Both the position numbers and the translations under genes were made by a program. Source: Phototrophicus methaneseepsis (GTDB lineage: Bacteria > Chloroflexota > Anaerolineae > Aggregatilineales > Phototrophicaceae). Taken from it: a stretch of DNA of 64,000 nucleotides. The DNA lies in contig NZ_CP062983.1 in the NCBI RefSeq assembly GCF_015500095.1, positions 3,100,001-3,164,000 on the forward strand, in the 5' to 3' direction. The number at the start of each line of letters is the position of its first letter. The stretch's first letter is position 1. Below, one piece after another: positions 1 through 60,795 of this stretch. The notes beneath the pieces are model-generated. The model searched no databases, was not told the DNA's origin, and saw only the letters and a program-made list of their open reading frames with translations.

Positions 1-1536
1 GAAGATGACAGGCGTGGTCTGATAGGCGCGAGGCTCAAAGGTTACCTCTTCCGTGAACCCGGTCATCCAGCCGACTGCATCCAGGAATAAGGTGCTGTTC
101 CCAGCAGGTGATTGCACACGGCCATTTGTCAGGAAATCGCCATCGCCAACGAGGACGACTTTCGCATTTGTTTCTTCGTCAAAGGCCCATCCGACTGTGG
201 TCAGTGGCCCAGGTGTATCTGTGGCGGAATCAAACGAGAATTGGTTTTGTTGGAAAATCGCGGCCCAATCACGTTCGCCCCAGCTTTCGTTGCTGGTCAT
301 GATGATACGGCCATTTTGGACGGGCGGCTCATCATTAATTTCTACGGCGCGCGCAATATGGAACAGGGTGGCCGTTTCGGGCTGTCCTTCCAGGTTGATA
401 TTTGCCCCGATGCTGTTATTAGCAAAGACTTGTGCGCTGAGGATACTAAGCTGGCTTTCGCTGCTAGAGACCAGATCCACGGCGATCATGTCGGTCATAC
501 GTAGGCCATAATGATCCCACATATATTGATTAAACTCAGAATCCGGCGCCATGAACAGATCATCCGTTAGCATCGCATCAGCAGCGATGAAGACGCTGCC
601 GCCATTAGCCAGATAGGCATCCAGAATGGCGATTTCTTCGCTCGTCATCTGGCGGCGCGGCTGGGCGATCACCAATGCAGATGCATCAACCGGCATTTGT
701 TCCCCGGTCGCAGCTAGTTCTGATAGGCTAACCGGATTCGTAACGAGGCCATTCTGCCGCATGATGTTATTCAGTAAGGACATCCCTTGCTGTTGATTAT
801 CCAGCGGGTCCAGTTCGCCCATTCCTGTTTCGAAGTAAACAGTAAATTGTCCGGATGCCATCAAAATTGATAAGGCCTGAGCGATGTTTTCTTCTTGGAG
901 GCCCGTTATTTGAACAGGGATTGTATCTCCCAGGCTGCCATCTGGCTCCACAAAGGAAGCGAAAACATAATATTCACTCATTAGCGCATTAGCATAAGGG
1001 GCTGCCAAACCGGGTTGTTCTTCAGGGTCAATATAGACGACATGCAGTCGTCCCTGGCTGGCTTCTTCAAAGAGCTGGAAGTACTGGTCATCGACTTCTC
1101 GTAGGGCGATATCCCCGGCACTATAGAAGGCTGTGATTTGAATATCGCGGGTATTTCGTGCGACTGCATCCATCAAATCCAGGGTTATGTCAGAGAGGCT
1201 GAAGCGCTCGTCAATCGTCATGTCACCGACGATATTTGCTCTCTGGACGACCACGTAGGCTGTTGTAACGATGCCGATGAGAATGGCCGTGCTGAGAATG
1301 GCAAGTGTGCTCTGGCGCATTTGCCGGCCAGTGAATAAAGCCTGGACTTCTTCTGGCAGGATGATAGCCCATAAGACCAGGGCAATGATTGCAACGACGA
1401 GCGCGCCAATTGTCAGCGTGTTTAGCCCGCCCCATAAAAAGCTTACAAGGGCCAGAATAAGGCTGACGCTGCCTATCAGGATACCTATTTGCCCGATTTG
1501 CCCGCGTGTAATGCGGACGGAATTACGTTCAGACAT
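1..1536 (-). CDS. GldG-like ABC transporter auxiliary protein (3' end outside window)
   Basis: The frame is open from an ATG at 1536 to the window edge, giving 512 residues with no stop. Three hydrophobic segments sit near the N-terminus (about residues 13-35, 41-61 and 76-98). A long soluble region follows that fits the GldG/ABC_transp_aux family of predicted extracytoplasmic partners of ABC exporters. The start overlaps the stop of the upstream permease as TAATG, so the two are translationally coupled. The third operon member is the ATPase at 2277-3182. In Bacteroidetes this family acts in gliding, but homologues are widespread and the substrate here is unknown. The C-terminal end, where a last membrane helix is usual, lies outside the window. 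Confidence 0.85.
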   Translation of the reverse strand, partial: MSERNSVRITRGQIGQIGILIGSVSLILALVSFLWGGLNTLTIGALVVAIIALVLWAIILPEEVQALFTGRQMRQSTLAILSTAILIGIVTTAYVVVQRANIVGDMTIDERFSLSDITLDLMDAVARNTRDIQITAFYSAGDIALREVDDQYFQLFEEASQGRLHVVYIDPEEQPGLAAPYANALMSEYYVFASFVEPDGSLGDTIPVQITGLQEENIAQALSILMASGQFTVYFETGMGELDPLDNQQQGMSLLNNIMRQNGLVTNPVSLSELAATGEQMPVDASALVIAQPRRQMTSEEIAILDAYLANGGSVFIAADAMLTDDLFMAPDSEFNQYMWDHYGLRMTDMIAVDLVSSSESQLSILSAQVFANNSIGANINLEGQPETATLFHIARAVEINDEPPVQNGRIIMTSNESWGERDWAAIFQQNQFSFDSATDTPGPLTTVGWAFDEETNAKVVLVGDGDFLTNGRVQSPAGNSTLFLDAVGWMTGFTEEVTFEPRAYQTTPVIF

Positions 1537-2261
1537 TAGCGCCACCTCCGCGAAGATACGACCTGTATCGCGACGAAGAGAGCAATCGCGATAATGCCTG
1601 CATAATAAACGAGATCTTCAGCGCGTAAGACACCAATGGCGAAGGAAGCCATGAAGTGGCCGCGTAACGTCAGATTAAAGAGGACATCAGCAACACGCAC
1701 GTCACTGATAAGTTGGCTGATGTTATCGCCATAATAAAGGATAAAGAGCGTTGTTAGACTGAGAAAAGCGGCCAGAATCTGGTTTTCTGTGGTCGCACTA
1801 AACAACGTCCCGATTGCGAGAGTGGCCCCACCATAAATCCAGATGCCTAGATAGCTGCCTAGCATATGGCTGATATCAGGGAAGGAGATGCTTATAGCAA
1901 TCACCTGATAAATCAGTGTGAGCAAGAGCAGTATTGTATAGAAGGCCCAGGCACTCAAAAACTTACCTATGACAATGCTGCTATCTGTCACCGGGGCAGT
2001 CAACAGCAGCTCCATTGTGCCTTCACGCTCTTCTTCTGCGAGGAGGCGCATTGTGAGTAATGGCGAGAACAAAATAAGGATGCTGGCAAGTAGGGACGGC
2101 ACAGCAGCAGGGTCAAGCGGTTTGACGCTGATGCTTGCGAGTAAATCACTGTTGAACGTGATGCCCGTCAGCAGCAAAAAAGCTGCACCAATTAAATAGG
2201 CCATAGGCGATGTGAGGTATTGCCCCATCTCTCGCCTGAAGATCAGCCAAGTTGCGCGCAT
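1536..2261 (-). CDS. ABC-2 type permease (GldF/NosY-like)
   Basis: This is a 241-residue protein with about six hydrophobic segments. A cytoplasmic EEEREGTMELLL segment near residues 77-88 is typical of ABC-2 permeases of the GldF/NosY type. It would form the membrane channel driven by the ATPase encoded 15 nt upstream (2277-3182). Its stop overlaps the start of the GldG-like gene (TAATG). Length matches the family (about 240 aa). The substrate cannot be told from the sequence. Confidence 0.88.
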   Translation of the reverse strand: MRATWLIFRREMGQYLTSPMAYLIGAAFLLLTGITFNSDLLASISVKPLDPAAVPSLLASILILFSPLLTMRLLAEEEREGTMELLLTAPVTDSSIVIGKFLSAWAFYTILLLLTLIYQVIAISISFPDISHMLGSYLGIWIYGGATLAIGTLFSATTENQILAAFLSLTTLFILYYGDNISQLISDVRVADVLFNLTLRGHFMASFAIGVLRAEDLVYYAGIIAIALFVAIQVVSSRRWR

Positions 2262-2276
2262 AATGGCTCCAGAGGG

Positions 2277-3182
2277 TTAGTTCACTAATTGCATGAAGAT
2301 GTCTTCCAGCCGGGTATCGACCGGACGCATTTCCATAAGGTCCAGGTTGTTTGCCGCGACGGCGTTCATAAGGGTATGGCGGATTGCGTCATTATCTGTG
2401 CCATGCACGATAAAGCCGCCTTCATGGGCCTCAACACTGTTGATGCCGGGTAAGGCTGCTAACATCTCTCCGAGTTCGCTTGTGTCACCAGCAAACTTGA
2501 CGTAGAAATTCACGCCGTGCTGGTACTTTTGCCGGAGAATATCTGTACTGCCTGCCGCGACAATGTGCCCCTTATCGATGATAACGACTCGGTCGCAGAT
2601 CTGCTCGACTTCTGACAAAATGTGGCTACTGAACAGAATCGTATGCTGGCTTCTCAGGCTCTTGACGACATCACGAACTTCAACCACCTGCTTCGGATCA
2701 ATGCCAATCGTCGGTTCATCCAGGATAATGACAGGTGGATTGTGTACCAACGCCTGTGCCAGACCAAGCCGCTGCCGCAGGCCTTTAGAAAGGCTGCGTA
2801 CCAGCTTTTTGCGCCGATCAAGTAGGCCAAATTGCGTTAGCACCTCCTGTGTGCGAGCTTTCGCGTTTTGTGTGCGACGCAGCCTCGCCCAGTAGAGGAC
2901 ATAACTTTCAACGGTCATATCCGGGTAGATAGGTACTTGTTCTGGCATATAGCCGACGCGCTGTCGCACTTGCATCGAATCTTCCATGACATCGAATCCG
3001 TCGACTTTCACCGTGCCAGAGGTGACAGGCATGTAGCCTGTCAGCACGCGCATCGTTGTGGTTTTGCCTGCGCCATTGGGGCCGAGCAAGCCGACGATCT
3101 CGCCGGGGTTTGCACTAAAGCTGATGCCGTCGACAGCGGCCACGTTGCCGTATTTCTTCACCAGATTTGTGACTTCAATCAT
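2277..3182 (-). CDS. ABC transporter ATP-binding protein (GldA-like)
   Basis: This 301-residue ABC ATPase has Walker A GPNGAGKTT near residue 34, the signature LSKGLRQRLGLAQ, Walker B VIILDEPTIGID and an H-loop in FSSHILSEVEQ. The C-terminal extension of about 80 residues is the DUF4162-like tail common in ABC-2 exporters. It is the first gene of a minus-strand operon with the permease and GldG-like protein. An AGAGGAA ribosome site lies 9 nt before the ATG. The upstream region has an 11-nt direct repeat (3258-3283) that may be an operator. Confidence 0.92.
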   Translation of the reverse strand: MIEVTNLVKKYGNVAAVDGISFSANPGEIVGLLGPNGAGKTTTMRVLTGYMPVTSGTVKVDGFDVMEDSMQVRQRVGYMPEQVPIYPDMTVESYVLYWARLRRTQNAKARTQEVLTQFGLLDRRKKLVRSLSKGLRQRLGLAQALVHNPPVIILDEPTIGIDPKQVVEVRDVVKSLRSQHTILFSSHILSEVEQICDRVVIIDKGHIVAAGSTDILRQKYQHGVNFYVKFAGDTSELGEMLAALPGINSVEAHEGGFIVHGTDNDAIRHTLMNAVAANNLDLMEMRPVDTRLEDIFMQLVN

Positions 3183-3402: not shown

Positions 3403-3433
3403 TTGCATTCTCGCACAGTTAGAATTGGATAAT
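3403..3433 (+). promoter_or_regulatory. Possible sigma-70 promoter of the arg leader
   Basis: TTGCAT (3403-3408) and GATAAT (3428-3433) are separated by 19 nt, at the long end of the usual range. Transcription from here would start near 3440 and run through the leader mini-ORF and terminator into argC. The match is moderate and other starts are possible. Confidence 0.35.
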
Positions 3434-3551
3434 CTGCACAATGAAATTCACAAAGTGCCTAATATTTTGCCAGATGTTTGACATGACCTCTGTTCTGGCT
3501 TACACTTTCGCGAATTGTTTGATCAACACAGATGAGTCACATTTTCGAAGC

Positions 3552-3632
3552 ATGAGTTTTTTGCCGCGCAACTACCGACGTCGTCTTCCCTACGATAATG
3601 AGGTCGTAACGGAACTGTTGCGCTGCGTCTAA
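3552..3632 (+). CDS. Putative Arg-rich leader peptide of the arg operon
   Basis: A 26-codon ORF begins ATG AGT TTT and ends TAA at 3630-3632. It has five Arg codons, three of them consecutive (CGA CGT CGT, 3576-3584) after CGC at 3567. It lies 31 nt before a strong intrinsic terminator that itself sits just ahead of argC. No plus-strand gene upstream would need that terminator. The same frame opens at 3441 (63 codons), so the true start is uncertain, and the ribosome site before 3552 (GAAG) is weak. The layout fits ribosome-mediated attenuation by arginine supply. This is an inference; the ORF could also be fortuitous. Confidence 0.45.
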   Translation: MSFLPRNYRRRLPYDNEVVTELLRCV

Positions 3633-3663
3633 CGCACTGCGTCGATATTACACAAGTACCGTT

Positions 3664-3702
3664 AACCCTGACCTCAGTTATGATTGAGGTCAGGGTTTTT
3701 TT
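3664..3702 (+). terminator. Intrinsic terminator / probable attenuator before argC
   Basis: A perfect 13-bp stem (AACCCTGACCTCA, 3664-3676, with TGAGGTCAGGGTT, 3685-3697) encloses an 8-nt loop and ends in seven T (3696-3702). It is 17 nt before the argC ATG, with only the AGGAG ribosome site between. The segment GACCTCA (3670-3676) can also pair with TGAGGTC at 3599-3605. That would disrupt the terminator and give an antiterminator. Confidence 0.85.
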
Positions 3703-3719
3703 ATGTCAGGAGCATGTGA

Positions 3720-4724
3720 ATGAGCGATAAAATCCGGGTCGGCATCTATGGGGCTGCTGGTTATGCCGGGCAAGATATGGTCGAGCTGATGCTGCGGCAT
3801 CCGAATATCCGTCTGGTGTTTGGGACTTCTAGCACGGATGCAGGTGAGTTTATTCCCTATACCGATCTTCGTTATATTCCGCCTGAAGAAGCGATTATCG
3901 AAGATGCGGACCTTGTTGTGCTGGCATTACCTCATGGCGCATCTGCACAAGTCGCCAAGCAAGCGCTGGATGCTGGTGTCCGCGTGATTGACCTATCGGC
4001 TGATTTGCGCTTGGATACGCCGGAAGCCTACAAAACCTGGTATGGCCTGGATCATCCTTATCCTGAATTGTTGAATGCACCTTATGGCCTGCCTGAAATC
4101 AACCGGGATAATATCCGGGGCACATTGGCTGTTGGCGCTCCTGGTTGCTACCCGACAACGACACTCCTCGGCCTTTATCCGTTATTAGCGACAGAAGCGC
4201 TTGATCCTGGTGCACCTGTGATCGTCGATGCCAAGTCCGGCGTTACGGGGGCAGGGCGCTCTCCAAAAGCAAATACCCACTTTGTCGAAGTTTATGGCAA
4301 TTTAACGCCTTATAAAACAGGTCGTAAGCATCGCCACGTCGGCGAAATTGAACAGGAGATGCATAAGATCACAACCCAGTGTGGGCCGCTGATCTTTACC
4401 CCGCATTTGCTGCCTGTGGCTCGTGGTTTGATGGCGAGTATCTATGTCACGCTGAACCCGACGATGACGAGTGATCGTGTTCATAGCCTGTACACCAATC
4501 ACTACGCTGATGAACCGCTGGTTAAGGTGTTGCCCCTGGGCGCAGATGCCACGCTGCGCGATGCCGTCCTGTCGAATCATTGCGCTATCAGCATTACACC
4601 TGTGACGGAAACGCATGTGCTCATCACCAGCGTGACCGATAACTTGCGTAAGGGTGCTTCTTCGCAGGGGTTACAGTGCTTCAATCTGATGTATGGTTTT
4701 GAAGAGACGTTGGCGCTCATATAA
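3720..4724 (+). CDS. argC: N-acetyl-gamma-glutamyl-phosphate reductase
   Basis: This 334-residue NADPH-dependent enzyme reduces N-acetylglutamyl phosphate to the semialdehyde, the third step of ornithine synthesis. The N-terminal Rossmann motif GIYGAAGYAG is present. The catalytic cysteine is Cys143 in GAPGCYPTT, and KHRHVGEIEQE carries the conserved His region. An AGGAG site lies 7 nt before the ATG. It is the first gene of argC-argB-argD-argJ (gap of 10 nt to argB) and sits directly behind a terminator-containing leader, so expression of the whole set is probably controlled there. Confidence 0.97.
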   Translation: MSDKIRVGIYGAAGYAGQDMVELMLRHPNIRLVFGTSSTDAGEFIPYTDLRYIPPEEAIIEDADLVVLALPHGASAQVAKQALDAGVRVIDLSADLRLDTPEAYKTWYGLDHPYPELLNAPYGLPEINRDNIRGTLAVGAPGCYPTTTLLGLYPLLATEALDPGAPVIVDAKSGVTGAGRSPKANTHFVEVYGNLTPYKTGRKHRHVGEIEQEMHKITTQCGPLIFTPHLLPVARGLMASIYVTLNPTMTSDRVHSLYTNHYADEPLVKVLPLGADATLRDAVLSNHCAISITPVTETHVLITSVTDNLRKGASSQGLQCFNLMYGFEETLALI

Positions 4725-4734
4725 GGTGTGATGC

Positions 4735-5523
4735 ATGACTGAAACATGGGTAATCAAGATCAGCGGGCATGAGTTGGGTGATGAGGACTTCCTGGCAACA
4801 TTTGCCCAGACCATTGCAGATTTGCCGCAGAATGTCGTCATCGTGCATGGCGGCGGCAAAGAGATCAGCGAATTACAGACGCGCCTGGGCATTGAAACAC
4901 ATTTTGCGGATGGCGTCCGTATCACAGATGCGGATTCCCTGGCGCTGGTGGAGATGGTGCTCTGCGGTGTCGTCAATAAGCGGCTGGTGCGGGTGCTGTT
5001 AAATGCAGGCGTGCAGGCTATTGGCCTGAGCGGTGTGGATATGGGTATGGTGCAAGCGACGAAATTGGTGCACCCCACGATTGATATGATTTACACCGGG
5101 CAGGTGGCATCGCTTCATATTGATCCGCTGCGACGATTCATCGAACAGGGTCTGACGCCTGTTCTGGCCCCAATCTGCTATGGTGGCGCACATAACTACA
5201 ATGTCAATGCCGATCACGTCGCCGGGGCACTGGCGGCAGCACTCCATGCGGAGCGCGTTGTCTTCATCAGTAATGTGCCGGGTGTGCTTGTCGATGAAGT
5301 TGTGATGCCACAGGCAACGCCTTCTGAGGTGGATGCCCTGATTGCGGATGGCACCATATATGGTGGCATGATTCCCAAAGTTCAGACAGCGTTGCACGTC
5401 CTGCAAGACGGGGTGCCTAGTGCGACGATCACCAATTTAGACGGTTTGCGGCAGCAAACAGGGACGACTTTTATACAAGAAGCGGTTCAAGAAGAGCAAA
5501 AAGAGGTTGAAGAGAATGAGTGA
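4735..5523 (+). CDS. argB: Acetylglutamate kinase
   Basis: This 262-residue amino-acid-kinase-fold enzyme phosphorylates N-acetylglutamate. Visible motifs are the N-terminal KISGHEL lysine loop, the glycine-rich VIVHGGGKEIS segment and the C-terminal GGMIPKVQTAL segment. The last 20 residues are rich in Glu and Gln. I see no N-terminal extension of the arginine-sensitive hexameric type, so feedback inhibition by arginine is uncertain. The 3' end overlaps argD by 8 nt, which suggests translational coupling. Confidence 0.96.
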   Translation: MTETWVIKISGHELGDEDFLATFAQTIADLPQNVVIVHGGGKEISELQTRLGIETHFADGVRITDADSLALVEMVLCGVVNKRLVRVLLNAGVQAIGLSGVDMGMVQATKLVHPTIDMIYTGQVASLHIDPLRRFIEQGLTPVLAPICYGGAHNYNVNADHVAGALAAALHAERVVFISNVPGVLVDEVVMPQATPSEVDALIADGTIYGGMIPKVQTALHVLQDGVPSATITNLDGLRQQTGTTFIQEAVQEEQKEVEENE

Positions 5524-6721
5524 AAACACGGATGCACAAGCCGTTATTCAGGCTGAACATGATTATCTCGTACAGACATATGTACGGCCTGATTTTGTGT
5601 TGCAGCACGGTGACGGTATGACGCTCTATGATGATGCCGGGAATGCTTATACCGATTGGGTGGCTGGGATTGCCGTTAACGCGCTTGGCTATAACGATGC
5701 TGGGATTGCCGCTGCGATGCAGCAGCAGACCGCGACAGGCATTATCCATACCAGCAACTTATATTTCACAGAGCCACAGGTGCGCTTAGCAAAGGCCCTG
5801 GTGGAAAAATCATTCGCTGATCGTGTTTTCTTCAGCAATAGCGGCGCGGAAGCCAATGAAGGCGCGCTCAAATTCGCTCGGCGTGTCGCTTATGACAGCG
5901 GCAATGCCAATAAGGTCGAGGTCGTCACCTTTAGTGAAGCGTTCCATGGACGGACGTTAGCAGCGCTTTCCTTAACGCCTAAAGAAAAATACCAGAAGCC
6001 CTATAAACCGCTGATGGATCATGTTGTTGTGGCGGAGTTTAACAATATCGAGAGTGCTAAGGGCGCTATCAATGCCAATACTGCTGCTGTCATTCTGGAA
6101 CCGATCCAGGGTGAGGGCGGTATCAATGTTGCGACAGATGCATTTTTGCAGGTTGTGCGTGATCTGTGTGATGAGCATCAAGCTATCCTCATCTTCGATG
6201 AAATCCAATGTGGTATGGGGCGTAGTGGCACCTTATGGGCTTATGAACAAACCCCTGTTGTGCCGGATATTATGACGCTGGCAAAGCCCTTAGCCGGTGG
6301 GCTGCCTATCGGTGCGATTCTCTGTACAGAAGAAATTGCCTCACATCTGAAGCCAGGGGATCATGGCTCGACATTTGCGGGTGGGCCGTTGGTCACGAAT
6401 GTTGCCAGCTACATCCTTGAACGCATCAGCCAACCACAATTCCTGGCACACATTAAGGAAGTGGGGGATTACCTTCTTGAACGACTGGAAGAACTGAATA
6501 GCCCGTTGATTGTAGATGTGCGTGGGCGTGGTTTGATGTGTGCGATGGAGCTTAAGGTAGAAGTCGCACCCGTTATCAAAGCAGGTTATGAAAACGGCTT
6601 GCTGATGGTCAATGCGGGGACCAATACAATTCGCTTTGTGCCGCCGCTCATCGCTGAAAAATCCGATGTTGATGAACTCGTTGAAAAAGTGACTGCCATT
6701 TTGGAGGTTGTCCATGCCTAG
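5516..6721 (+). CDS. argD: Acetylornithine aminotransferase
   Basis: This class III PLP aminotransferase converts N-acetylglutamate semialdehyde to N-acetylornithine. The PLP lysine is Lys257 in TLAKPLAGG. NSGAEANEGALKFAR binds the cofactor phosphate, and FDEIQCGMGRSG is the conserved Asp region. I chose the ATG at 5516 (401 aa), since GAGG lies 9 nt before it. An in-frame TTG at 5507 would add three residues. It overlaps argB at the start and argJ at the end. Members of this family can also act on N-succinyl-diaminopimelate or ornithine, but the operon argues for ArgD. Confidence 0.95.
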   Translation: MSENTDAQAVIQAEHDYLVQTYVRPDFVLQHGDGMTLYDDAGNAYTDWVAGIAVNALGYNDAGIAAAMQQQTATGIIHTSNLYFTEPQVRLAKALVEKSFADRVFFSNSGAEANEGALKFARRVAYDSGNANKVEVVTFSEAFHGRTLAALSLTPKEKYQKPYKPLMDHVVVAEFNNIESAKGAINANTAAVILEPIQGEGGINVATDAFLQVVRDLCDEHQAILIFDEIQCGMGRSGTLWAYEQTPVVPDIMTLAKPLAGGLPIGAILCTEEIASHLKPGDHGSTFAGGPLVTNVASYILERISQPQFLAHIKEVGDYLLERLEELNSPLIVDVRGRGLMCAMELKVEVAPVIKAGYENGLLMVNAGTNTIRFVPPLIAEKSDVDELVEKVTAILEVVHA

Positions 6722-7955
6722 CCCTGTGAAAACGACGGACCTGATGAATACGATTGAATCGGTTGCTGGTTTCCATGTGGCGGGTGTGCATGCAGGCCTT
6801 AAGAAGAATGGCAAGCTGGATTTTGCTATTATCGCCAGTGATGTGCCCTGCGTTGCGGCAGGTGTCTTCACCCAGAATACTGTGAAGGCAGCGCCTGTAT
6901 TGTTGAATATGGAACGTCTGGCTGCCTCCGCTACCGATAAACGCGCTGTAGCCATCAATACAGTCAGCGCTAATGCTTGTACAGGTGAGCAGGGTATGCA
7001 GAATGCACGACGCATGTCGGAGCTCGTCGCGGAGGCGATTGACGCCAGCGCAGAGCAGATTTTCGTCATGTCAACCGGTGTCATTGGCACGCAATTGCCC
7101 ATGCAGAAGATTGAGCAGGGCGTTTCGCTCGCATCTCAGGCATTAGGGGACGACTGGCAAAGTGCGGCAGCAGCAATCATGACCACAGATACGCGCCCCA
7201 AACAAGCCGCTATAACAGTGGAAACAGAACAAGGCAGCTACACCATTGCGGGTATTTCAAAAGGCTCCGGTATGATCGCGCCAAATATGGCGACGATGCT
7301 GTGCGTTGTGACGACGGATGCCGAGTTATCTCCGGCACTGGCTCAGTCTTCATTGGGGGCAGCTGCAGATGTGAGCTTCAATCGGATTGTTGTGGATGGC
7401 GATACGAGCACCAACGATATGGTGATTTTGTTGGCGAACGGACAGAGTGACATCACTGTAGAGGGTGATGCGATGAGCCAGCAGTTCCAGGCGGCTCTGA
7501 ACGAGGTGTTGACATCTCTTTCTAAGCAGATCGTCCGGGATGGTGAAGGCGTGAGCAAATTCATCAGCCTGCATGTGGAAGGCGCTCATAGTGATGAAGA
7601 TGCTTTGCAGATTGCGCGTACGATTGCGACATCCCCGCTGGTGAAGACGGCGTTCTATGGCAATGATGCCAATTGGGGCCGTATTATCGCGGCGGCAGGC
7701 CGTGCAGGTGTTCCCTTTGATCCTGACAAAGCGGCGTTATACTTTGCGGTGGGCGAAGATGCTGTCGATGGCAAACTGTGCCTCTTCGCTAATGGGCAAG
7801 TCGCCGCCTATTCAGAAGAAGATGCAACGGCCATTATCACACAGGATGATGTGACTGTCTCCCTGGATTGCGGCAATGGTGATGGAAGCTGCCACATCTG
7901 GACCTGTGATCTGAGCCATGAATATGTGTCGATCAATGGCGATTATCGCAGTTAA
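6714..7955 (+). CDS. argJ: Bifunctional glutamate N-acetyltransferase / N-acetylglutamate synthase
   Basis: ArgJ moves the acetyl group from N-acetylornithine to glutamate, so the pathway is cyclic and needs no separate deacetylase. The autocleavage motif GMIAPNMATML is present with the nucleophile Thr194, predicting alpha and beta chains. The ATG at 6714 (413 aa) is 6 nt after GGAGG; an in-frame TTG at 6708 is less likely. It overlaps the end of argD by 8 nt. No argA is seen here; whether this ArgJ also uses acetyl-CoA cannot be decided by eye. It is the last gene before a 169-nt gap to carA. Confidence 0.95.
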   Translation: MPSPVKTTDLMNTIESVAGFHVAGVHAGLKKNGKLDFAIIASDVPCVAAGVFTQNTVKAAPVLLNMERLAASATDKRAVAINTVSANACTGEQGMQNARRMSELVAEAIDASAEQIFVMSTGVIGTQLPMQKIEQGVSLASQALGDDWQSAAAAIMTTDTRPKQAAITVETEQGSYTIAGISKGSGMIAPNMATMLCVVTTDAELSPALAQSSLGAAADVSFNRIVVDGDTSTNDMVILLANGQSDITVEGDAMSQQFQAALNEVLTSLSKQIVRDGEGVSKFISLHVEGAHSDEDALQIARTIATSPLVKTAFYGNDANWGRIIAAAGRAGVPFDPDKAALYFAVGEDAVDGKLCLFANGQVAAYSEEDATAIITQDDVTVSLDCGNGDGSCHIWTCDLSHEYVSINGDYRS

Positions 7956-8124: not shown

Positions 8125-9261
8125 ATGAATAACGCGGTACTGGTGCTGGAAGATGGGCGCGTATTCCCGGGGACGGGATTTGGCGCGCAAGGGGTGATGA
8201 CGGGCGAACTTGTCTTTAACACCTCTATGACGGGCTATCAGGAAATTCTGACAGACCCTTCATATCATAAACAAATTGTCACTATGACGGTGCCACACGT
8301 TGGCAATACTGGCATCAATGCGGAAGATGTGGAATCCCGCAGGGTGTGGGTGGCGGGGTTCGTCATTCGTTCGTTAAGTCCCATCGTCAGTAACTGGCGT
8401 AATCGAAGCAATCTCGATAGTTATCTGCGCGATCAAGGTGTCATTGGCGTCGCTGATGTGGCGACCCGTGCCCTGGTGCGCCACATTCGCAGCAAAGGCG
8501 TCATGCGGGCGGCGATTGCGCATGGCTATGGCGCGCAGAATATCGACGCACTGATTGATATTGCGCGCAACTCACCAGATATGTCTGGCTGGAATCTTGT
8601 CGATGATGTGACGACCGCAGAGCCTTATAATTGGTCTGAGCATAGCGATGTACAGTGGTACAAGCATACGGATAACGCGGTCAGCGGGCCGCTAGTCGTC
8701 GCTTATGACTATGGCATCAAGAGTAATATCCTGCGCATGATGACAGACCGTGGTTTGCGCGTGACGGTCGTCCCGGCGCAGACCCCCGCGGAAAAAGTAT
8801 TAGAGATGAAGCCGTCTGGTATCTTCCTGAGTAATGGCCCCGGCGACCCCGCAGCTGTTGATTATGCCATTGACAATGTGCATAACCTGCTCGGCAAAGT
8901 GCCTATCTTTGGCATCTGCCTGGGACACCAGATTTTGGCCTTGGCCATGGGTGGTAAGACCGAGAAGATGCCTTTTGGGCATCGTGGCGGTAACCAGCCT
9001 GTCAAGAACCTGCTGACGGGCAAAGTCGAGATTAGCTCTCACAATCATGGTTTTGCTGTTTCGGCGGATAGCGATCTTGGTGGCGCAGAAGTAACCCACA
9101 TCAACCTCAATGATAAAACCATTGAAGGCATCCAACACAAAGGTATGCAGGCTTTCAGCGTGCAGTATCATCCTGAAGCTTCGCCTGGGCCGCATGACTC
9201 ACTCTATCTGTTTGACGAATTCGTCAACGCGGTCAAAGACCCGACACCGATTGAAGAGTAG
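8125..9261 (+). CDS. carA: Carbamoyl-phosphate synthase small (glutaminase) subunit
   Basis: This 378-residue subunit releases ammonia from glutamine for CarB. The N-terminal CarA domain (about 1-140) is followed by a class I glutamine amidotransferase domain. The triad is Cys265 in FGICLGHQ with His349 and Glu351 in QYHPEASPG. GAGGAG lies 4 nt before the ATG. carB follows after 64 nt. The pair supplies carbamoyl phosphate for both arginine and pyrimidine synthesis; linkage to arg genes suggests arginine is the main reason for its position. Confidence 0.97.
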   Translation: MNNAVLVLEDGRVFPGTGFGAQGVMTGELVFNTSMTGYQEILTDPSYHKQIVTMTVPHVGNTGINAEDVESRRVWVAGFVIRSLSPIVSNWRNRSNLDSYLRDQGVIGVADVATRALVRHIRSKGVMRAAIAHGYGAQNIDALIDIARNSPDMSGWNLVDDVTTAEPYNWSEHSDVQWYKHTDNAVSGPLVVAYDYGIKSNILRMMTDRGLRVTVVPAQTPAEKVLEMKPSGIFLSNGPGDPAAVDYAIDNVHNLLGKVPIFGICLGHQILALAMGGKTEKMPFGHRGGNQPVKNLLTGKVEISSHNHGFAVSADSDLGGAEVTHINLNDKTIEGIQHKGMQAFSVQYHPEASPGPHDSLYLFDEFVNAVKDPTPIEE

Positions 9262-9325: not shown

Positions 9326-12300
9326 ATGCCCAAACGCACAGACATTCAGACGATTATGATCATTGGCTCCGGCCCGATTGTCATCGGGCAAGCCAGTGAA
9401 TTTGACTACAGCGGTGTGCAAGCCTGTAAGGCCTTGCGGTCGCTTGGCTATCGGGTGGTATTGGTCAACAGCAATCCTGCCACCATTATGACGGACCCGG
9501 AATTTGCCGATGCAACTTATGTCGAGCCGCTGACCGTCGATATTGCTGAACAAATCATCGCGACAGAAAAGCCCGATGCTTTATTGCCGACAGTAGGCGG
9601 GCAGACCGGGCTGAACCTGGCTCTGGCCCTGACTGAAGCTGGCGTGCTGGAAAAATACAACGTTGAACTCATCGGCGCGTCCATGGATAGCATCCGCATT
9701 GCCGAAGACCGCGAGTTGTTCAAAGAGACCATGACAGAAATTGGTCTGAAGTCCCCAGCTAGCCAGATTGTTGGCTCAGTTGACGAGGCCCTTGGCTTCG
9801 TAGACCAGATTGGCTATCCAGCGTTGATTCGCCCGTCATTTACATTAGGCGGCAGCGGCGGCGGTGTTGCCTATAACGAAGATCAACTACGCGAGATTGT
9901 TGCTCGTGGTATCCGGCTTAGTCCGGTGCGGCAGGTCTTATTAGATAGGAGCCTGCTTGGTTGGAAGGAATACGAGTTGGAATTGATGCGCGACGGTGAA
10001 GGCAACTTCGTTGTCGTCTGCTCGATTGAAAACCTCGACCCGATGGGTGTACACACGGGCGACAGTATCACCATCGCCCCGGCACAGACCCTGACCGATA
10101 AAGAGTTGCAGCGCCTGCGTAATATGTGCCGTGCTATCTTCGATCGTATTGGCATCACGACAGGCGGCGCGAACGTCCAGTTTGCAATTAACCCCGCTGA
10201 TGGCGATGTCTTTGTTATCGAGATGAATCCGCGTGTGTCGCGTTCATCAGCGCTCGCCAGTAAAGCAACTGGCTTCCCGATAGCGAAGATCGCAGCATTA
10301 GTCGCTGTCGGCCTGACGCTGGATGAAATCCCGAATGACATTACCAGAGAAACCCCTGCCAGCTTCGAGCCATCGCTGGATTACGTGGTGGTCAAGATTC
10401 CGCGCTGGGACTTCAAAAAGTTCGCAGGTGTGGATCAGGTGCTCGGCCCGCAGATGAAAGCCGTGGGCGAGGTCATGGCGATTGGCCGGACCTTCCCGGA
10501 AGCGCTGCAAAAAGCTGTGCGTTCGCTGGATATCGGCATTGATGGTCTGGGGAGTAAAGTCGATCCTATCGCGAACCCGGCTATGCTGCGTATCCCAACA
10601 GCACAACGGCTTTACCAGGTGGCCTCTGCTTTACATGAAGGCGTGACGCCGGAAGAGATCGTGCAGGAGACGGAGTTCGACCCCTGGTTTGTACAACAGA
10701 TGGTCGATACGATGCAGATTCATGATTCTATCCTGCAAAAGCACCTGAAGCTGACTGACCTTGATGCAAAAGATATGCTCAAGCTTAAGGAATATGGCTT
10801 TAGCGATGCCTATATTGGCCTATTAACGGAAGAAACAGAGCCTGCTGTGCGCGCTCATCGTAAGGCACTCGGCATTGAGGCGAACTTCTACCGTGTCGAT
10901 ACCTGTGCGGCGGAATTTGAAGCACAGACGCCTTATCTGTATTCGACTTATGAAGAAGATGATGAAGCAACACCCAGCGATAAGCGTAAAGTCATGATCC
11001 TTGGCGGCGGGCCGAACCGCATCGGCCAGGGTATTGAGTTCGACTACTGCTGTGTGCACGCATGCTTCGCGCTCAAGAACGAAGGCTATGAGACGATCAT
11101 GGTCAATTGCAACCCTGAGACGGTCAGCACCGATTATGATACGGCGGATCGCCTTTATTTTGAGCCGCTGACGGCAGAAGATGTCATGAACATCATCGAT
11201 AAAGAAAAGCCGGATGGTGTGCTTGTGCAGTTTGGCGGGCAGACTCCGCTCAATATTGCTCGTGAGTTGCAGGACTATGGTGCGCCTATCTGGGGTACGT
11301 CTGTTGATACCATTGACCTGGCAGAAGATCGTGAACGCTTCAATGAGTTGATGCAAGAATTGGGCGTTCAGCAACCTCCAGGTGCCACCGCCATGAATCG
11401 TGAAGAAGCTGTCGTTAAAGCGGCTCAGATTGGTTACCCCGTCTTGGTACGCCCCAGCTACGTGCTCGGTGGTCGTGGTATGTCGATTGTCTTTGATGAA
11501 GATCGTCTGAAAGAATGGATTGATGAGCACATCGAATGGACAGGGCACCCGGTCCTGATTGACCACTTCCTGGATGATGCCTTCGAAGTCGATGTCGATG
11601 CTCTGGGCGATGGGGAACATGTGACGATTGGCGGCATTATGCAGCACATTGAAGAAGCCGGTGTGCATAGTGGTGACTCGGCTTGTGTGCTGCCGCCTTA
11701 TAAAATCAGTCAGTATCACCTGGATATCATCCGCGACTACACACAGCGCATTGGCAAAGCAATGGGCGTGAAAGGCCTCTTCAACATCCAGTTTGCTGTG
11801 AAAGACGATGAAGTTTATGTGTTAGAAGTCAACCCGCGGGCCAGCCGGACAGTGCCATTCGTCAGCAAGGCGACAGGCTTCCCGCTTGCCAGCTATGCCG
11901 CGCGCATTGCAGCCGGCGCGACCCTGACAGAGTTGGGCTATCTACAGGAGCCGAAGGTCGATGGCTTCTTCGTGAAGGAAGCTGTGCTGCCATTCCAGAA
12001 GTTCCCGGATGTGGACGCGCTGTTGGGGCCGGAGATGCGCTCTACGGGTGAGGTGATGGGTCATGCGAGTAGCTTTGGTCACGCCTTTGTTAAAGCGCAG
12101 ATGGCCGCTAATATGCCTCTGCCGCAGTCTGGGACTGTCTTCATCAGTGTGAATGACTTTGATAAAGGGACGGTGGCCCGCATTGCGCGCGATCTTTATC
12201 AGATGGATTTCAAGATCGTGGCAACGGAAGGGACAGCCCAATATCTTAATCATGCTGGCATCCCGGCTGAACGCATCAATAAAGTGGCGGAAGGCTCGCC

Positions 12301-12550
12301 GCATGTGGTGGATGCCCTCCGCGAAGGCAAGATTGATCTTGTTATCAATACGCCGCTGGGTATGCAGGCCCATGAAGATGGTGCATCGATCCGCAGCATG
12401 TGTTATCAGGTGAGTGTGCCCATCATCACGACGATGAGCGCTGCTATGGCCTCGCTGCAGGGTATCAAGCGGCGTCACCAGGCACCGCTGCGCGTGCGTA
12501 GCTTGCAAGCACATCACGCGAATGCGCATCATGCAATCGGTGCAAGTTGA
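9326..12550 (+). CDS. carB: Carbamoyl-phosphate synthase large subunit
   Basis: This 1074-residue protein has the full double architecture. There are two homologous ATP-grasp halves (about 1-400 and 550-940), an oligomerisation region between them, and a C-terminal MGS-like allosteric domain (about 945-1060). Repeated signatures such as [17 protein letters not shown] and [17 protein letters not shown] mark the two halves, and [20 protein letters not shown] is the ATP/metal-binding segment. The C-terminal tail is rich in Arg, His and Ala. The stop overlaps the start of the following membrane-protein gene. Confidence 0.98.
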
Positions 12551-60612: not shown

Positions 60613-60684
60613 TGCGGGGTAGAGCAGTGGCAGCTCGTCGGGCTCATAACCCGGAGGTCGGAGGTTCGAATCCTCCCCCCGCGA
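60613..60684 (+). tRNA. tRNA-fMet (CAU), initiator
   Basis: A full cloverleaf: acceptor TGCGGGG/CCCCGCG, D stem GAGC/GCTC, anticodon stem TCGGG/CCCGG with loop CTCATAA (anticodon CAU), T arm GGAGG-TTCGAAT-CCTCC, and discriminator A. Three G-C pairs (GGG/CCC) next to the anticodon loop and a weak first pair (T1-G72) mark it as the initiator. The 3' CCA is not encoded (CAA follows), so a CCA-adding enzyme is needed. Confidence 0.93.
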
Positions 60685-60691
60685 CAAACAA

Positions 60692-60768
60692 GGTGATATA
60701 GCTCAGCTGGTTAGAGCGCTTCACTCATAATGAAGAGGTCCCTGGTTCAAGTCCAGGTATCACCACCA
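60692..60768 (+). tRNA. tRNA with CAU anticodon (elongator Met or Ile2)
   Basis: Cloverleaf with acceptor GGTGATA/TATCACC, D stem GCTC/GAGC, anticodon stem CTTCA/TGAAG with loop CTCATAA, T arm CCTGG-TTCAAGT-CCAGG, and discriminator A. CCA is encoded (60766-60768), unlike in the tRNA 7 nt upstream. Sequence alone does not decide between elongator Met and a lysidine-modified Ile2. Confidence 0.88.
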
Positions 60769-60774
60769 ACGAAG

Positions 60775-60795
60775 AGGCCCCGCAGGGCCTTTTTT
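60775..60795 (+). terminator. Terminator of the tRNA pair
   Basis: AGGCCC (60775-60780) pairs with GGGCCT (60785-60790) around CGCA, followed by a six-T run. It lies 7 nt after the second tRNA. Confidence 0.88.

What the first reader, a model, noticed from the sequence alone, without database searches (positions are those of the whole stretch)
3420..3719. Putative arginine-responsive attenuator ahead of argC-argB-argD-argJ
A 26-codon ORF (3552-3632) with three consecutive Arg codons precedes a perfect 13-bp terminator (3664-3702) that sits 17 nt before argC. No other plus-strand gene could use that terminator. TGAGGTC at 3599-3605, just after the Arg codons, can pair with the terminator 5' arm GACCTCA at 3670-3676. 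GACCTC at 3485-3490 can in turn pair with GAGGTC at 3600-3605. This gives the mutually exclusive 1:2, 2:3 and 3:4 order of trp-type attenuators. A stall at the Arg codons (3576-3584) would leave region 2 free about 15 nt downstream, favouring antitermination. Arginine attenuation by leader peptide is not a mechanism I know for this phylum; weak points are the poor ribosome site and uncertain start.
Basis: partly seen in the sequence, partly recalled or inferred. Interest (0 to 1): 0.82.

Follow-up and report, generated by a model that had tools for sequence, protein, structure and literature searches.

The report
Arginine leader-peptide attenuator before argC
The arginine-making genes of this bacterium sit behind a built-in RNA on/off switch that appears to read how fast a ribosome gets through a few arginine codons; the same switch recurs in related bacteria in which the usual arginine repressor was not found.

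Summary
Before argC-argB-argD-argJ-carA-carB lie a sigma-70-like promoter (3478-3506), a 26-codon ORF with CGA CGT CGT (3552-3632) and a 15-bp terminator (3664-3702). In 42 of 48 argC upstream regions of the order a terminator, an Arg-rich short ORF and an antiterminator match occur together, against 4 of 480 dinucleotide shuffles. Own-partner antiterminator duplexes average -24.0 kcal/mol, cross-family ones -17.2; 0 of 2000 partner permutations reach the observed sum (43 loci). Other orders of the class: 45 of 82 against 7 of 410; outside the class I accept four loci from two of 48 sampled families. argG has terminator plus Arg ORF in 12 of 30 against 10 of 300. The ArgR C-terminal domain matched none of 61 order genomes. 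No Rfam family matched, and the papers searched do not describe it. It works like a trp-type attenuator with arginine specificity. The arginine response is untested.

The parts
3435..3463 (+). conserved upstream motif TGCACAATGAAAT...AAAGTGCCTAAT, possible operator of an unknown regulator; not part of the attenuator
   Evidence: TGCACAA in 14 of 30 same-family argC upstream regions vs 32 of 600 shuffles; exactly 43 nt before TTGAC in six of them, the window included
3478..3506 (+). sigma-70-type promoter: -35 TTGACA (3478-3483), spacer 17, -10 TACACT (3501-3506); transcription start inferred near 3513
   Evidence: in 43 order loci the best site has TTGAC in 36 and a 17-nt spacer in 39 (the score cut-off used there is also reached by 217 of 430 shuffles, means 7.79 vs 6.46)
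3552..3632 (+). leader peptide ORF, 26 codons, MSFLPRNYRRRLPYDNEVVTELLRCV
   Evidence: ATG at the same distance from the Arg codons in the same-genus relative L002
3576..3584 (+). three consecutive Arg codons CGA CGT CGT (proposed stall site); further Arg codons at 3567-3569 and 3621-3623
   Evidence: Arg runs with synonymous codon variation, AGG and AGA included, in relatives
3563..3584 (+). region 1 (protector arm), overlapping the Arg codons; pairs with 3598-3606 and 3617-3626
   Evidence: minimum-energy folds of the window; moderate support only across relatives
3595..3616 (+). region 2 (antiterminator 5' arm), contains TGAGGTC 3599-3605
3655..3681 (+). region 3 (antiterminator 3' arm; its 3' part is the terminator 5' arm)
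3664..3702 (+). intrinsic terminator, 15-bp stem 3664-3678/3683-3697, T-run 3696-3702 (regions 3:4)
3720..4724 (+). argC, N-acetyl-gamma-glutamyl-phosphate reductase
   Evidence: TIGR01850, 334 bits, over cut-off
4735..5523 (+). argB, acetylglutamate kinase
   Evidence: TIGR00761 over cut-off
5507..6721 (+). argD, acetylornithine transaminase (ORF start as listed)
   Evidence: TIGR00707 over cut-off
6708..7955 (+). argJ, ornithine/glutamate acetyltransferase (ORF start as listed)
   Evidence: NF003802 and TIGR00120 over cut-off
8125..9261 (+). carA, carbamoyl-phosphate synthase small subunit
   Evidence: TIGR01368 over cut-off
9326..12550 (+). carB, carbamoyl-phosphate synthase large subunit
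   Evidence: TIGR01369 over cut-off

Best explanation
It is a ribosome-mediated transcription attenuator of the trp/his type that reads Arg-tRNA supply. Transcription starts near 3513. When Arg-tRNA is plentiful, the ribosome passes the Arg codons to the stop (3630-3632); region 2 is covered or re-paired with region 1, the terminator 3664-3702 forms, and argCBDJ(-carAB) is not transcribed. When Arg-tRNA is short, the ribosome halts on 3576-3584, covering region 1; region 2 (3595-3616) captures region 3 (3655-3681) before region 4 emerges, the terminator cannot form, and the operon is read. Supported by comparison: the Arg run, the terminator, and the antiterminator whose two sides change together. 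Inferred: the stall, the arginine signal, the details of region 1:2, leader translation, and cotranscription of carAB.
For: Terminator + Arg ORF + antiterminator match: 42 of 48 order argC upstream regions vs 4 of 480 shuffles; other orders of the class 45 of 82 vs 7 of 410. ORF with at least 5 Arg in 6: 22 of 48 vs 3 of 960 shuffles (order). Antiterminator in 43 order loci, not chosen for complementarity: own partners -24.0 vs cross-family -17.2 kcal/mol, 0 of 2000 permutations reach the observed sum; the 45 class loci give the same result but had been chosen for a high match score. Before region 4 is made the window folds into the antiterminator, 12 bp + 9 bp. R2:R3 pairs in the nascent fold: median 20 in 43 order loci vs 13 with region 2 shuffled. 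Arg codons near the run vary synonymously: CGT 101, CGC 79, AGG 6, CGA 4, CGG 1, AGA 1. Covariance model R1, built from 25 same-family leaders, finds 36 of 61 order genomes at argC; 25 of these trained it, 11 did not, and one of the 11 (G011) had never been aligned. A second copy in G015 (E 1.7e-10) lies just upstream of argG. argG: terminator + Arg ORF in 12 of 30 vs 10 of 300 shuffles. The operon is arginine biosynthesis. ArgR C-terminal domain: 0 of 61 order genomes, 8 of 14 controls. Of 35 argC loci titled as other phyla, 3 have terminator + Arg ORF and 1 the match too.
Against: No expression data. SD-like motif in only 10 of 43 leaders (shuffles 47 of 430), so leader translation is assumed. 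The protector helix is not distinguishable from shuffled region 1 by minimum-energy pairing in the order (40 of 43 vs 400 of 430; medians 15 vs 14); a two-part helix in 25 same-family leaders pairs in 85% of cells with only weak covariation. The cut-off of 8 R2:R3 pairs is reached by 43 of 43 order loci but also by 327 of 430 region-2 shuffles. Within the window's family the antiterminator hardly varies, so covariation there is slight; the strong signal is between families, and I counted no independent events on a tree. The frame counts (192 Arg in-frame, 29 and 6 in the other frames) are on ORFs chosen for Arg runs and are no test by themselves. Five same-family argC loci lack the element (L005, L022, L027, L029, L031).
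Confidence: 0.9

Rival explanations
1. Arrest-peptide switch: the nascent Arg-rich peptide itself, or peptide plus free arginine (as in the fungal arginine attenuator peptide, recalled), stalls the ribosome, so the signal is not tRNA charging.
For: Within the family the peptide looks conserved beyond Arg (RRPxTxEVxxGxL in many members).
Against: The non-Arg residues follow the RNA pairing: PxT and EV are encoded by the protector/region-2 bases, and in other families (RRTTSHRSGW, RRPRRRPAP, RRERRSRP) the peptide differs while region 2 still matches its own terminator. An arginine-induced stall would also give the wrong sign for a biosynthetic operon.
Confidence: 0.04
2. Translation-independent terminator (constitutive, or controlled by a protein or small molecule); the Arg-rich ORF is a by-product of RNA sequence constraint.
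For: SD-like motif in only 10 of 43 leaders; the Arg codons of the window overlap a predicted helix.
Against: Runs of 5 Arg in 6 codons are far above shuffles (22 of 48 vs 3 of 960) and Arg persists with AGG/AGA codons in L004, L007, L021 and L023; an ATG start is available in 41 of 43; argG leaders of different sequence also have Arg runs.
Confidence: 0.05
3. The attenuator acts mainly on translation of argC (hairpin hiding its ribosome site) rather than on transcription.
For: The terminator T-run ends 17 nt before argC in the window.
Against: In the window the stem is followed directly by T; the distance from hairpin to the argC match varies from 19 to 135 nt among the relatives in which one search found one, and the argG hairpins of the window's genus are 172-175 nt before the argG match.
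Confidence: 0.04

Closest known systems
Classical amino-acid leader-peptide attenuators (trp, his, leu, thr, ilv, phe)
   Same: Short ORF with a run of codons for the end product, antiterminator and intrinsic terminator sharing one arm, ahead of the biosynthetic operon
   Different: Arginine specificity; Chloroflexota; few leaders with an SD-like motif. PMC3766115 (passages seen) lists his, leu, thr, trp in Rfam plus ilv and phe described elsewhere; the word arginine does not occur in its main text
Salmonella speF orf34 (PMC6386406, abstract and other passages seen)
   Same: Consecutive Arg codons in a leader ORF sense arginine and change mRNA folding
   Different: Ornithine decarboxylase, not arginine biosynthesis; output is Rho termination, translation and RNase G decay, not an intrinsic terminator with antiterminator
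S. aureus rbfL (PMC13009471, passages seen)
   Same: Leader peptide whose Arg codons report arginine shortage
   Different: Rare AGA/AGG codons, translational control of rbf by blocking its ribosome site
carA leaders of Pseudomonas (PMC4997734, passages seen)
   Same: A leader peptide before carA in P. aeruginosa and predicted attenuation of carA in P. syringae, a gene shared with arginine synthesis
   Different: carA rather than argC; the passages do not describe Arg codons, and no possible leader start codon was seen in P. syringae DC3000
T-box
   Same: Reads tRNA charging for amino-acid operons; reported in Chloroflexi (Dehalococcoides) for ile and trp genes (PMC2494555, passages seen)
   Different: No T-box found by Rfam here; a T-box needs no leader peptide (general knowledge)
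ArgR / ARG box repression
   Same: Usual arginine-dependent control of arg operons (general knowledge)
   Different: No ArgR C-terminal domain match in 61 order genomes
cysS uORFC-8-2 motif (PMC8632094, passages seen)
   Same: Attenuator candidate with tandem codons of the cognate amino acid
   Different: Cysteine, alpha-proteobacteria

Membership tests
Ribosome-mediated (trp-type) transcription attenuator | Short leader ORF with several codons for the pathway's product | tested here: met
   Arg run plus terminator in 43 of 48 order argC upstream regions; 24 of 480 shuffles
Ribosome-mediated (trp-type) transcription attenuator | Intrinsic terminator between leader ORF and first structural gene | tested here: met
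   44 of 48 with hairpin of -8 kcal/mol or better plus T-run; shuffles 82 of 480
Ribosome-mediated (trp-type) transcription attenuator | Antiterminator mutually exclusive with the terminator, kept by covariation | tested here: met
   0 of 2000 permutations; its 3' arm overlaps the terminator 5' arm. No tree-aware test was run
Ribosome-mediated (trp-type) transcription attenuator | Region 1:2 protector hairpin blocked by the stalled ribosome | tested here: inconclusive
   Present in the window fold; not above shuffles in the order by minimum-energy pairs, weak covariation
Ribosome-mediated (trp-type) transcription attenuator | Controls genes of the matching amino acid | tested here: met
   By position; argG in 12 of 30
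Ribosome-mediated (trp-type) transcription attenuator | Read-through rises when the amino acid is scarce and depends on leader translation | not testable with these tools
   Needs RNA or reporter data
T-box | Match to the T-box covariance model | tested here: not met
   Rfam gathering scan of the window and 14 further sources: only tRNAs
Known Rfam leader families (Trp, His, Leu, Thr, Phe) | Match to a model at the gathering score | tested here: not met
ArgR-controlled operon | ArgR (PF01316 + PF02863) in the genome | tested here: not met
   PF02863 0 of 61 at E 0.001 or better; PF01316 8 of 61 at that level, 4 over its cut-off, all partial matches in family f8; the window's genome has one match below the cut-off (22.8 of 27 bits)

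The most novel reading that the evidence does not exclude
Arginine attenuation is the old arginine control of a deep branch of Chloroflexota: inherited across Anaerolineae and also present in Herpetosiphon/Roseiflexus-type lineages outside that class, acting on at least two transcription units (argC operon and argG), standing in for ArgR at least in the window's order, and driven by leaders that are mostly translated without a Shine-Dalgarno sequence.
Probability: 0.5. Interest if true: 0.72.

Novelty: new member of a known kind. Interest (0 to 1): 0.62.

Why it matters
No paper found in the searched library describes a leader-peptide attenuator for arginine biosynthesis. One whose parts recur and change together across many families of a deep-branching class, with no ArgR found in the order examined, suggests how these mostly uncultured bacteria control arginine synthesis and adds arginine to the attenuator specificities. 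[quoted passage not shown] this shows the principle at work far from there.

Tried and rejected
Protector by minimum-energy pairs: no better than shuffles in the order. Strict terminator finder missed bulged stems and was replaced. The third comparison (56 loci, with unusable energies) was discarded. Order-wide column count: 42 of 43 rows used (L046 had no core); it picks best matches per row and for some rows, L001 included, not the antiterminator, and its shuffle does not pick anew, so I do not rely on it. Alignment A3 misaligns the terminator of other families; only A2 was used for pair counts and the model. CM matches away from argC and the G015 argG copy are G030 (three), G027, G028, G032, G036, G060, and in G000 the reverse strand of the terminator plus two weak ones. 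I looked at the first residues of long frames around eight of them (G030 three, G027, G036, G028, the two weak G000 ones) and saw no arg gene I recognised, without a family search; G032 and G060 were not looked at. I treat them as chance.

Sampling. Order: one search covered 61 genomes, 54 with a match; 50 upstream regions were read; L049 and L050 (ArgC paralogues) were dropped before all order counts, leaving 48. G011 (split gene), G003, G013, G030 and the genomes without a match were not read. Class: 82 best-scoring matches outside the order (one partial match, G209, skipped). Outside the class: 60 loci, one to four per family, 48 families, from the capped list: the automatic test gave 5 of 60 vs 0 of 300 shuffles, six printed; I accept the two f78 loci (in L273 it had picked another hairpin) and add two f103 loci it missed; the other four printed I did not accept or study further; L274, L275, L277, L278 show no such element by eye. 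argG: 30 of 33 loci over the cut-off were fetched. Named collection: 78 of 80 loci scored (L097 and L101 were left out, having little or no upstream DNA); many duplicate the G genomes, so I count only the 35 titled as other phyla.

Literature: ten searches, eight on this subject. Papers were seen as listings or passages, none read whole. An argC attenuator in Streptomyces clavuligerus is recalled, not seen; the Lopatovskaya 2010 survey was seen only as a reference.

Full report
What is there. The window is G000:C1:3100001-3164000 of a 5.63-Mb genome, itself unnamed. Contigs of related genomes match in length with named MAG contigs of Anaerolineae (Chloroflexota): for example G018:C191 (14260 bases) and PGTJ01000032.1 'Phototrophicales bacterium', or G052:C225 (42540) and JARKNX010000210.1 'Aggregatilineales bacterium'. 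The operon is argC, argB, argD, argJ, then carA and carB, each over the cut-off of at least one fitting NCBIfam model. Upstream lie two ABC-transporter genes on the minus strand. Between them are a promoter TTGACA-17-TACACT at 3478-3506, the ORF 3552-3632 and a 15-bp terminator with a T-run.

Conservation. I read the argC upstream DNA of 48 orthologues of the order in seven families (two paralogous loci dropped). 43 of 48 have a terminator and a short Arg-rich ORF (shuffles 24 of 480). With an antiterminator match added the count is 42 of 48, against 4 of 480 dinucleotide shuffles. In other orders of the class 56 of 82 have terminator and ORF (shuffles 19 of 410) and 45 of 82 the match too (7 of 410); these 82 are the best-scoring matches, not all. 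Of 35 argC loci from records titled as other phyla, 3 have terminator and ORF and 1 the match. Outside the class but in the phylum, 60 loci from 48 families gave 5 of 60 against 0 of 300. On inspection, two f78 loci and two f103 loci have the element; three of the four have uninterrupted antiterminator helices of 9 to 11 bp. One f78 locus is on a contig of 6,346,587 bases, the chromosome length of Herpetosiphon aurantiacus in the abstract of PMC3368417; one f103 locus is on a contig of 5,801,598 bases, and Roseiflexus sp. RS-1 is given as 5.80 Mb in the same paper. Four inspected loci of f106 and f68, one on a contig whose length (5.26 Mb) fits Chloroflexus aurantiacus, do not have it. These species names are inferences from length, and their class (Chloroflexia) is recalled. 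Five same-family loci lack the element (L005, L022, L027, L029, L031); L005 comes from the same genus as L019, which has it, so it was probably lost there.

Codons. In the eight codons ending at the last Arg of the run, 43 leaders hold 192 Arg codons: CGT 101, CGC 79, AGG 6, CGA 4, CGG 1, AGA 1. Because the ORFs were chosen for Arg runs, the frame counts (29 and 6 in the other frames) and the constant second base of that codon are no independent test; the test is the shuffle control: ORFs with at least 4 Arg in 6 in 41 of 48 vs 104 of 960, with at least 5 in 22 of 48 vs 3 of 960. AGG/AGA codons in L004, L007, L021 and L023 show arginine kept where the RNA sequence is not. The non-Arg residues (PxT, EV) are encoded by pairing bases and change between families together with the terminator arm.

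Antiterminator. Region 2 and the terminator 5' arm change together: TGAGGTC/GACCTCA in the window's family, CGGTCTGG/CCAGACCG in f4, TGAGGTTCG/CGAACCTCA and TGGGGTTCG/CGAGCCCCA in f8, CGGGTCCG/CGGACCCG in f3, GGTCTGGA/TCCAGACC in f7. For the 43 order loci, chosen for terminator and ORF but not for complementarity, own-partner duplexes average -24.0 kcal/mol, cross-family ones -17.2, and none of 2000 permutations of partners reaches the observed sum. For a typical locus 5% of cross-family partners bind as well as its own; for 14 of 43 none does. The 45 class loci behave alike (-24.1 vs -18.1, 0 of 2000), but they were chosen for a high match score, so that result is biased. Permutation takes no account of the tree; I did not count independent events. 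Within the window's family alone covariation is slight because region 2 hardly varies (90.4% of cells paired; 2 of 500 shuffles as high). In the window the RNA before region 4 folds as 3595-3606:3669-3681 (12 bp) and 3607-3616:3655-3664 (9 bp); with region 4 present the terminator is the more stable form, so antitermination must be kinetic, as in trp (general knowledge).

Region 1. The window fold pairs the Arg codons 3576-3584 with 3598-3606 and 3563-3572 with 3617-3626, so a ribosome halted on the Arg codons would cover region 1 and leave region 2 free. In 35 of 42 rows the GRTY core begins 13-19 nt after the last Arg codon (that script's pairing is unreliable for some rows), just beyond a stalled ribosome's edge (about 10 nt past the A-site codon, general knowledge). 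Across 25 same-family leaders a two-part helix CCC/GGG + GACC/GGTC pairs in 85% of cells with 3 of 7 pairs changed on both sides (14 of 500 shuffles as high), but minimum-energy counts do not beat shuffled region 1 in the order (40 of 43 vs 400 of 430; in the class 39 of 45 vs 323 of 450). I rate this part as likely but not proven.

A second target and a missing repressor. The covariance model R1 was built from 25 same-family leaders, the window's included, so its match to the window leader (E 5.7e-22) is by construction. It matches 38 of 61 order genomes at E 0.01 or better, 36 of them at argC; 11 of the 36 were not in the model. In G015 a second match (E 1.7e-10) lies just upstream of argG. 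Of 30 argG upstream regions 12 have a terminator and an Arg-rich ORF, against 10 of 300 shuffles; 9 of 30 also have the antiterminator match, against 4 of 300. In the window's own genome the argG leader reads MMNLNRVRRPRLMQPAHMVPGDFGLV, with a terminator 175 nt before the argG match; the same-genus relative has a different stem at nearly the same place (ACCCCTGTCGCCAGGGGT and AACCTCTGTCACCAGAGGTT). These two, and the G015 copy, score below the antiterminator cut-off (14.5, 13 and 11.5), so by that measure they are weaker cases. The ArgR C-terminal domain PF02863 matched 0 of 61 order genomes and 8 of 14 controls. PF01316 matched 8 of 61, passing its cut-off in 4, all partial matches in family f8; the window's genome has one match below the cut-off. 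ArgR was not sought outside the order.

Weak points. Few leader ORFs have an SD-like motif (10 of 43; shuffles 47 of 430; argC 35 of 43 by a wider window), although 41 of 43 have an ATG start available. No expression data exist here. The statistics use my own detector with thresholds set while looking at the order; the class, phylum and argG sets were scored afterwards with the same code.

Known or new. Rfam 15 has no match at the leaders scanned. In the held library, eight searches on the subject found no arginine-biosynthesis attenuator with an Arg leader peptide and none for this phylum. PMC1262725 (passages) reports no conserved RNA structure upstream of arginine operons in Actinobacteria and mentions arginine T-boxes elsewhere; PMC3766115 (passages) lists his, leu, thr, trp, ilv and phe. 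PMC4997734 (passages) mentions a carA leader peptide in Pseudomonas aeruginosa and predicted carA attenuation in P. syringae. The nearest functional relatives are speF orf34 and rbfL, with other outputs. Subscription papers could not be searched, so priority is not certain. I file it as a new, arginine-specific member of the trp-type attenuators; one defining feature (region 1:2) is inconclusive and one (response to arginine) untested.

Noticed in passing
window 3435-3463: Motif TGCACAATGAAAT...AAAGTGCCTAAT, 43 nt before the -35 in six same-family loci including the window; TGCACAA in 14 of 30 same-family argC upstream regions vs 32 of 600 shuffles, and in 4 of 30 argG upstream regions. May be the operator of an unknown regulator.
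   Followed up: partly
G000:C1 about 3463340-3463480 (outside the window; L242): argG of the same genome has its own Arg-rich short ORF and terminator, followed by 175 nt with a TTGCACA motif before the argG match.
   Followed up: partly
L226-L229: Four genomes of family f8 have a 112-aa open frame with a partial Arg_repressor N-domain match but no Arg_repressor_C match in the genome.
   Followed up: no
L060 (JAHHHY010000001.1): The record is titled Pleurocapsa minor, but its length (1020678) equals G016:C22 of the window's family and it carries the same argC leader: the title probably misnames a Chloroflexota MAG.
   Followed up: no
window 1536-3182, minus strand: GldA/GldF-like ABC transporter pair, below the cut-off of those models, divergent from the arg operon.
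   Followed up: no
window 60613-60765: Two tRNA genes in tandem, followed at 60774-60791 by a short hairpin with a T-run.
   Followed up: no
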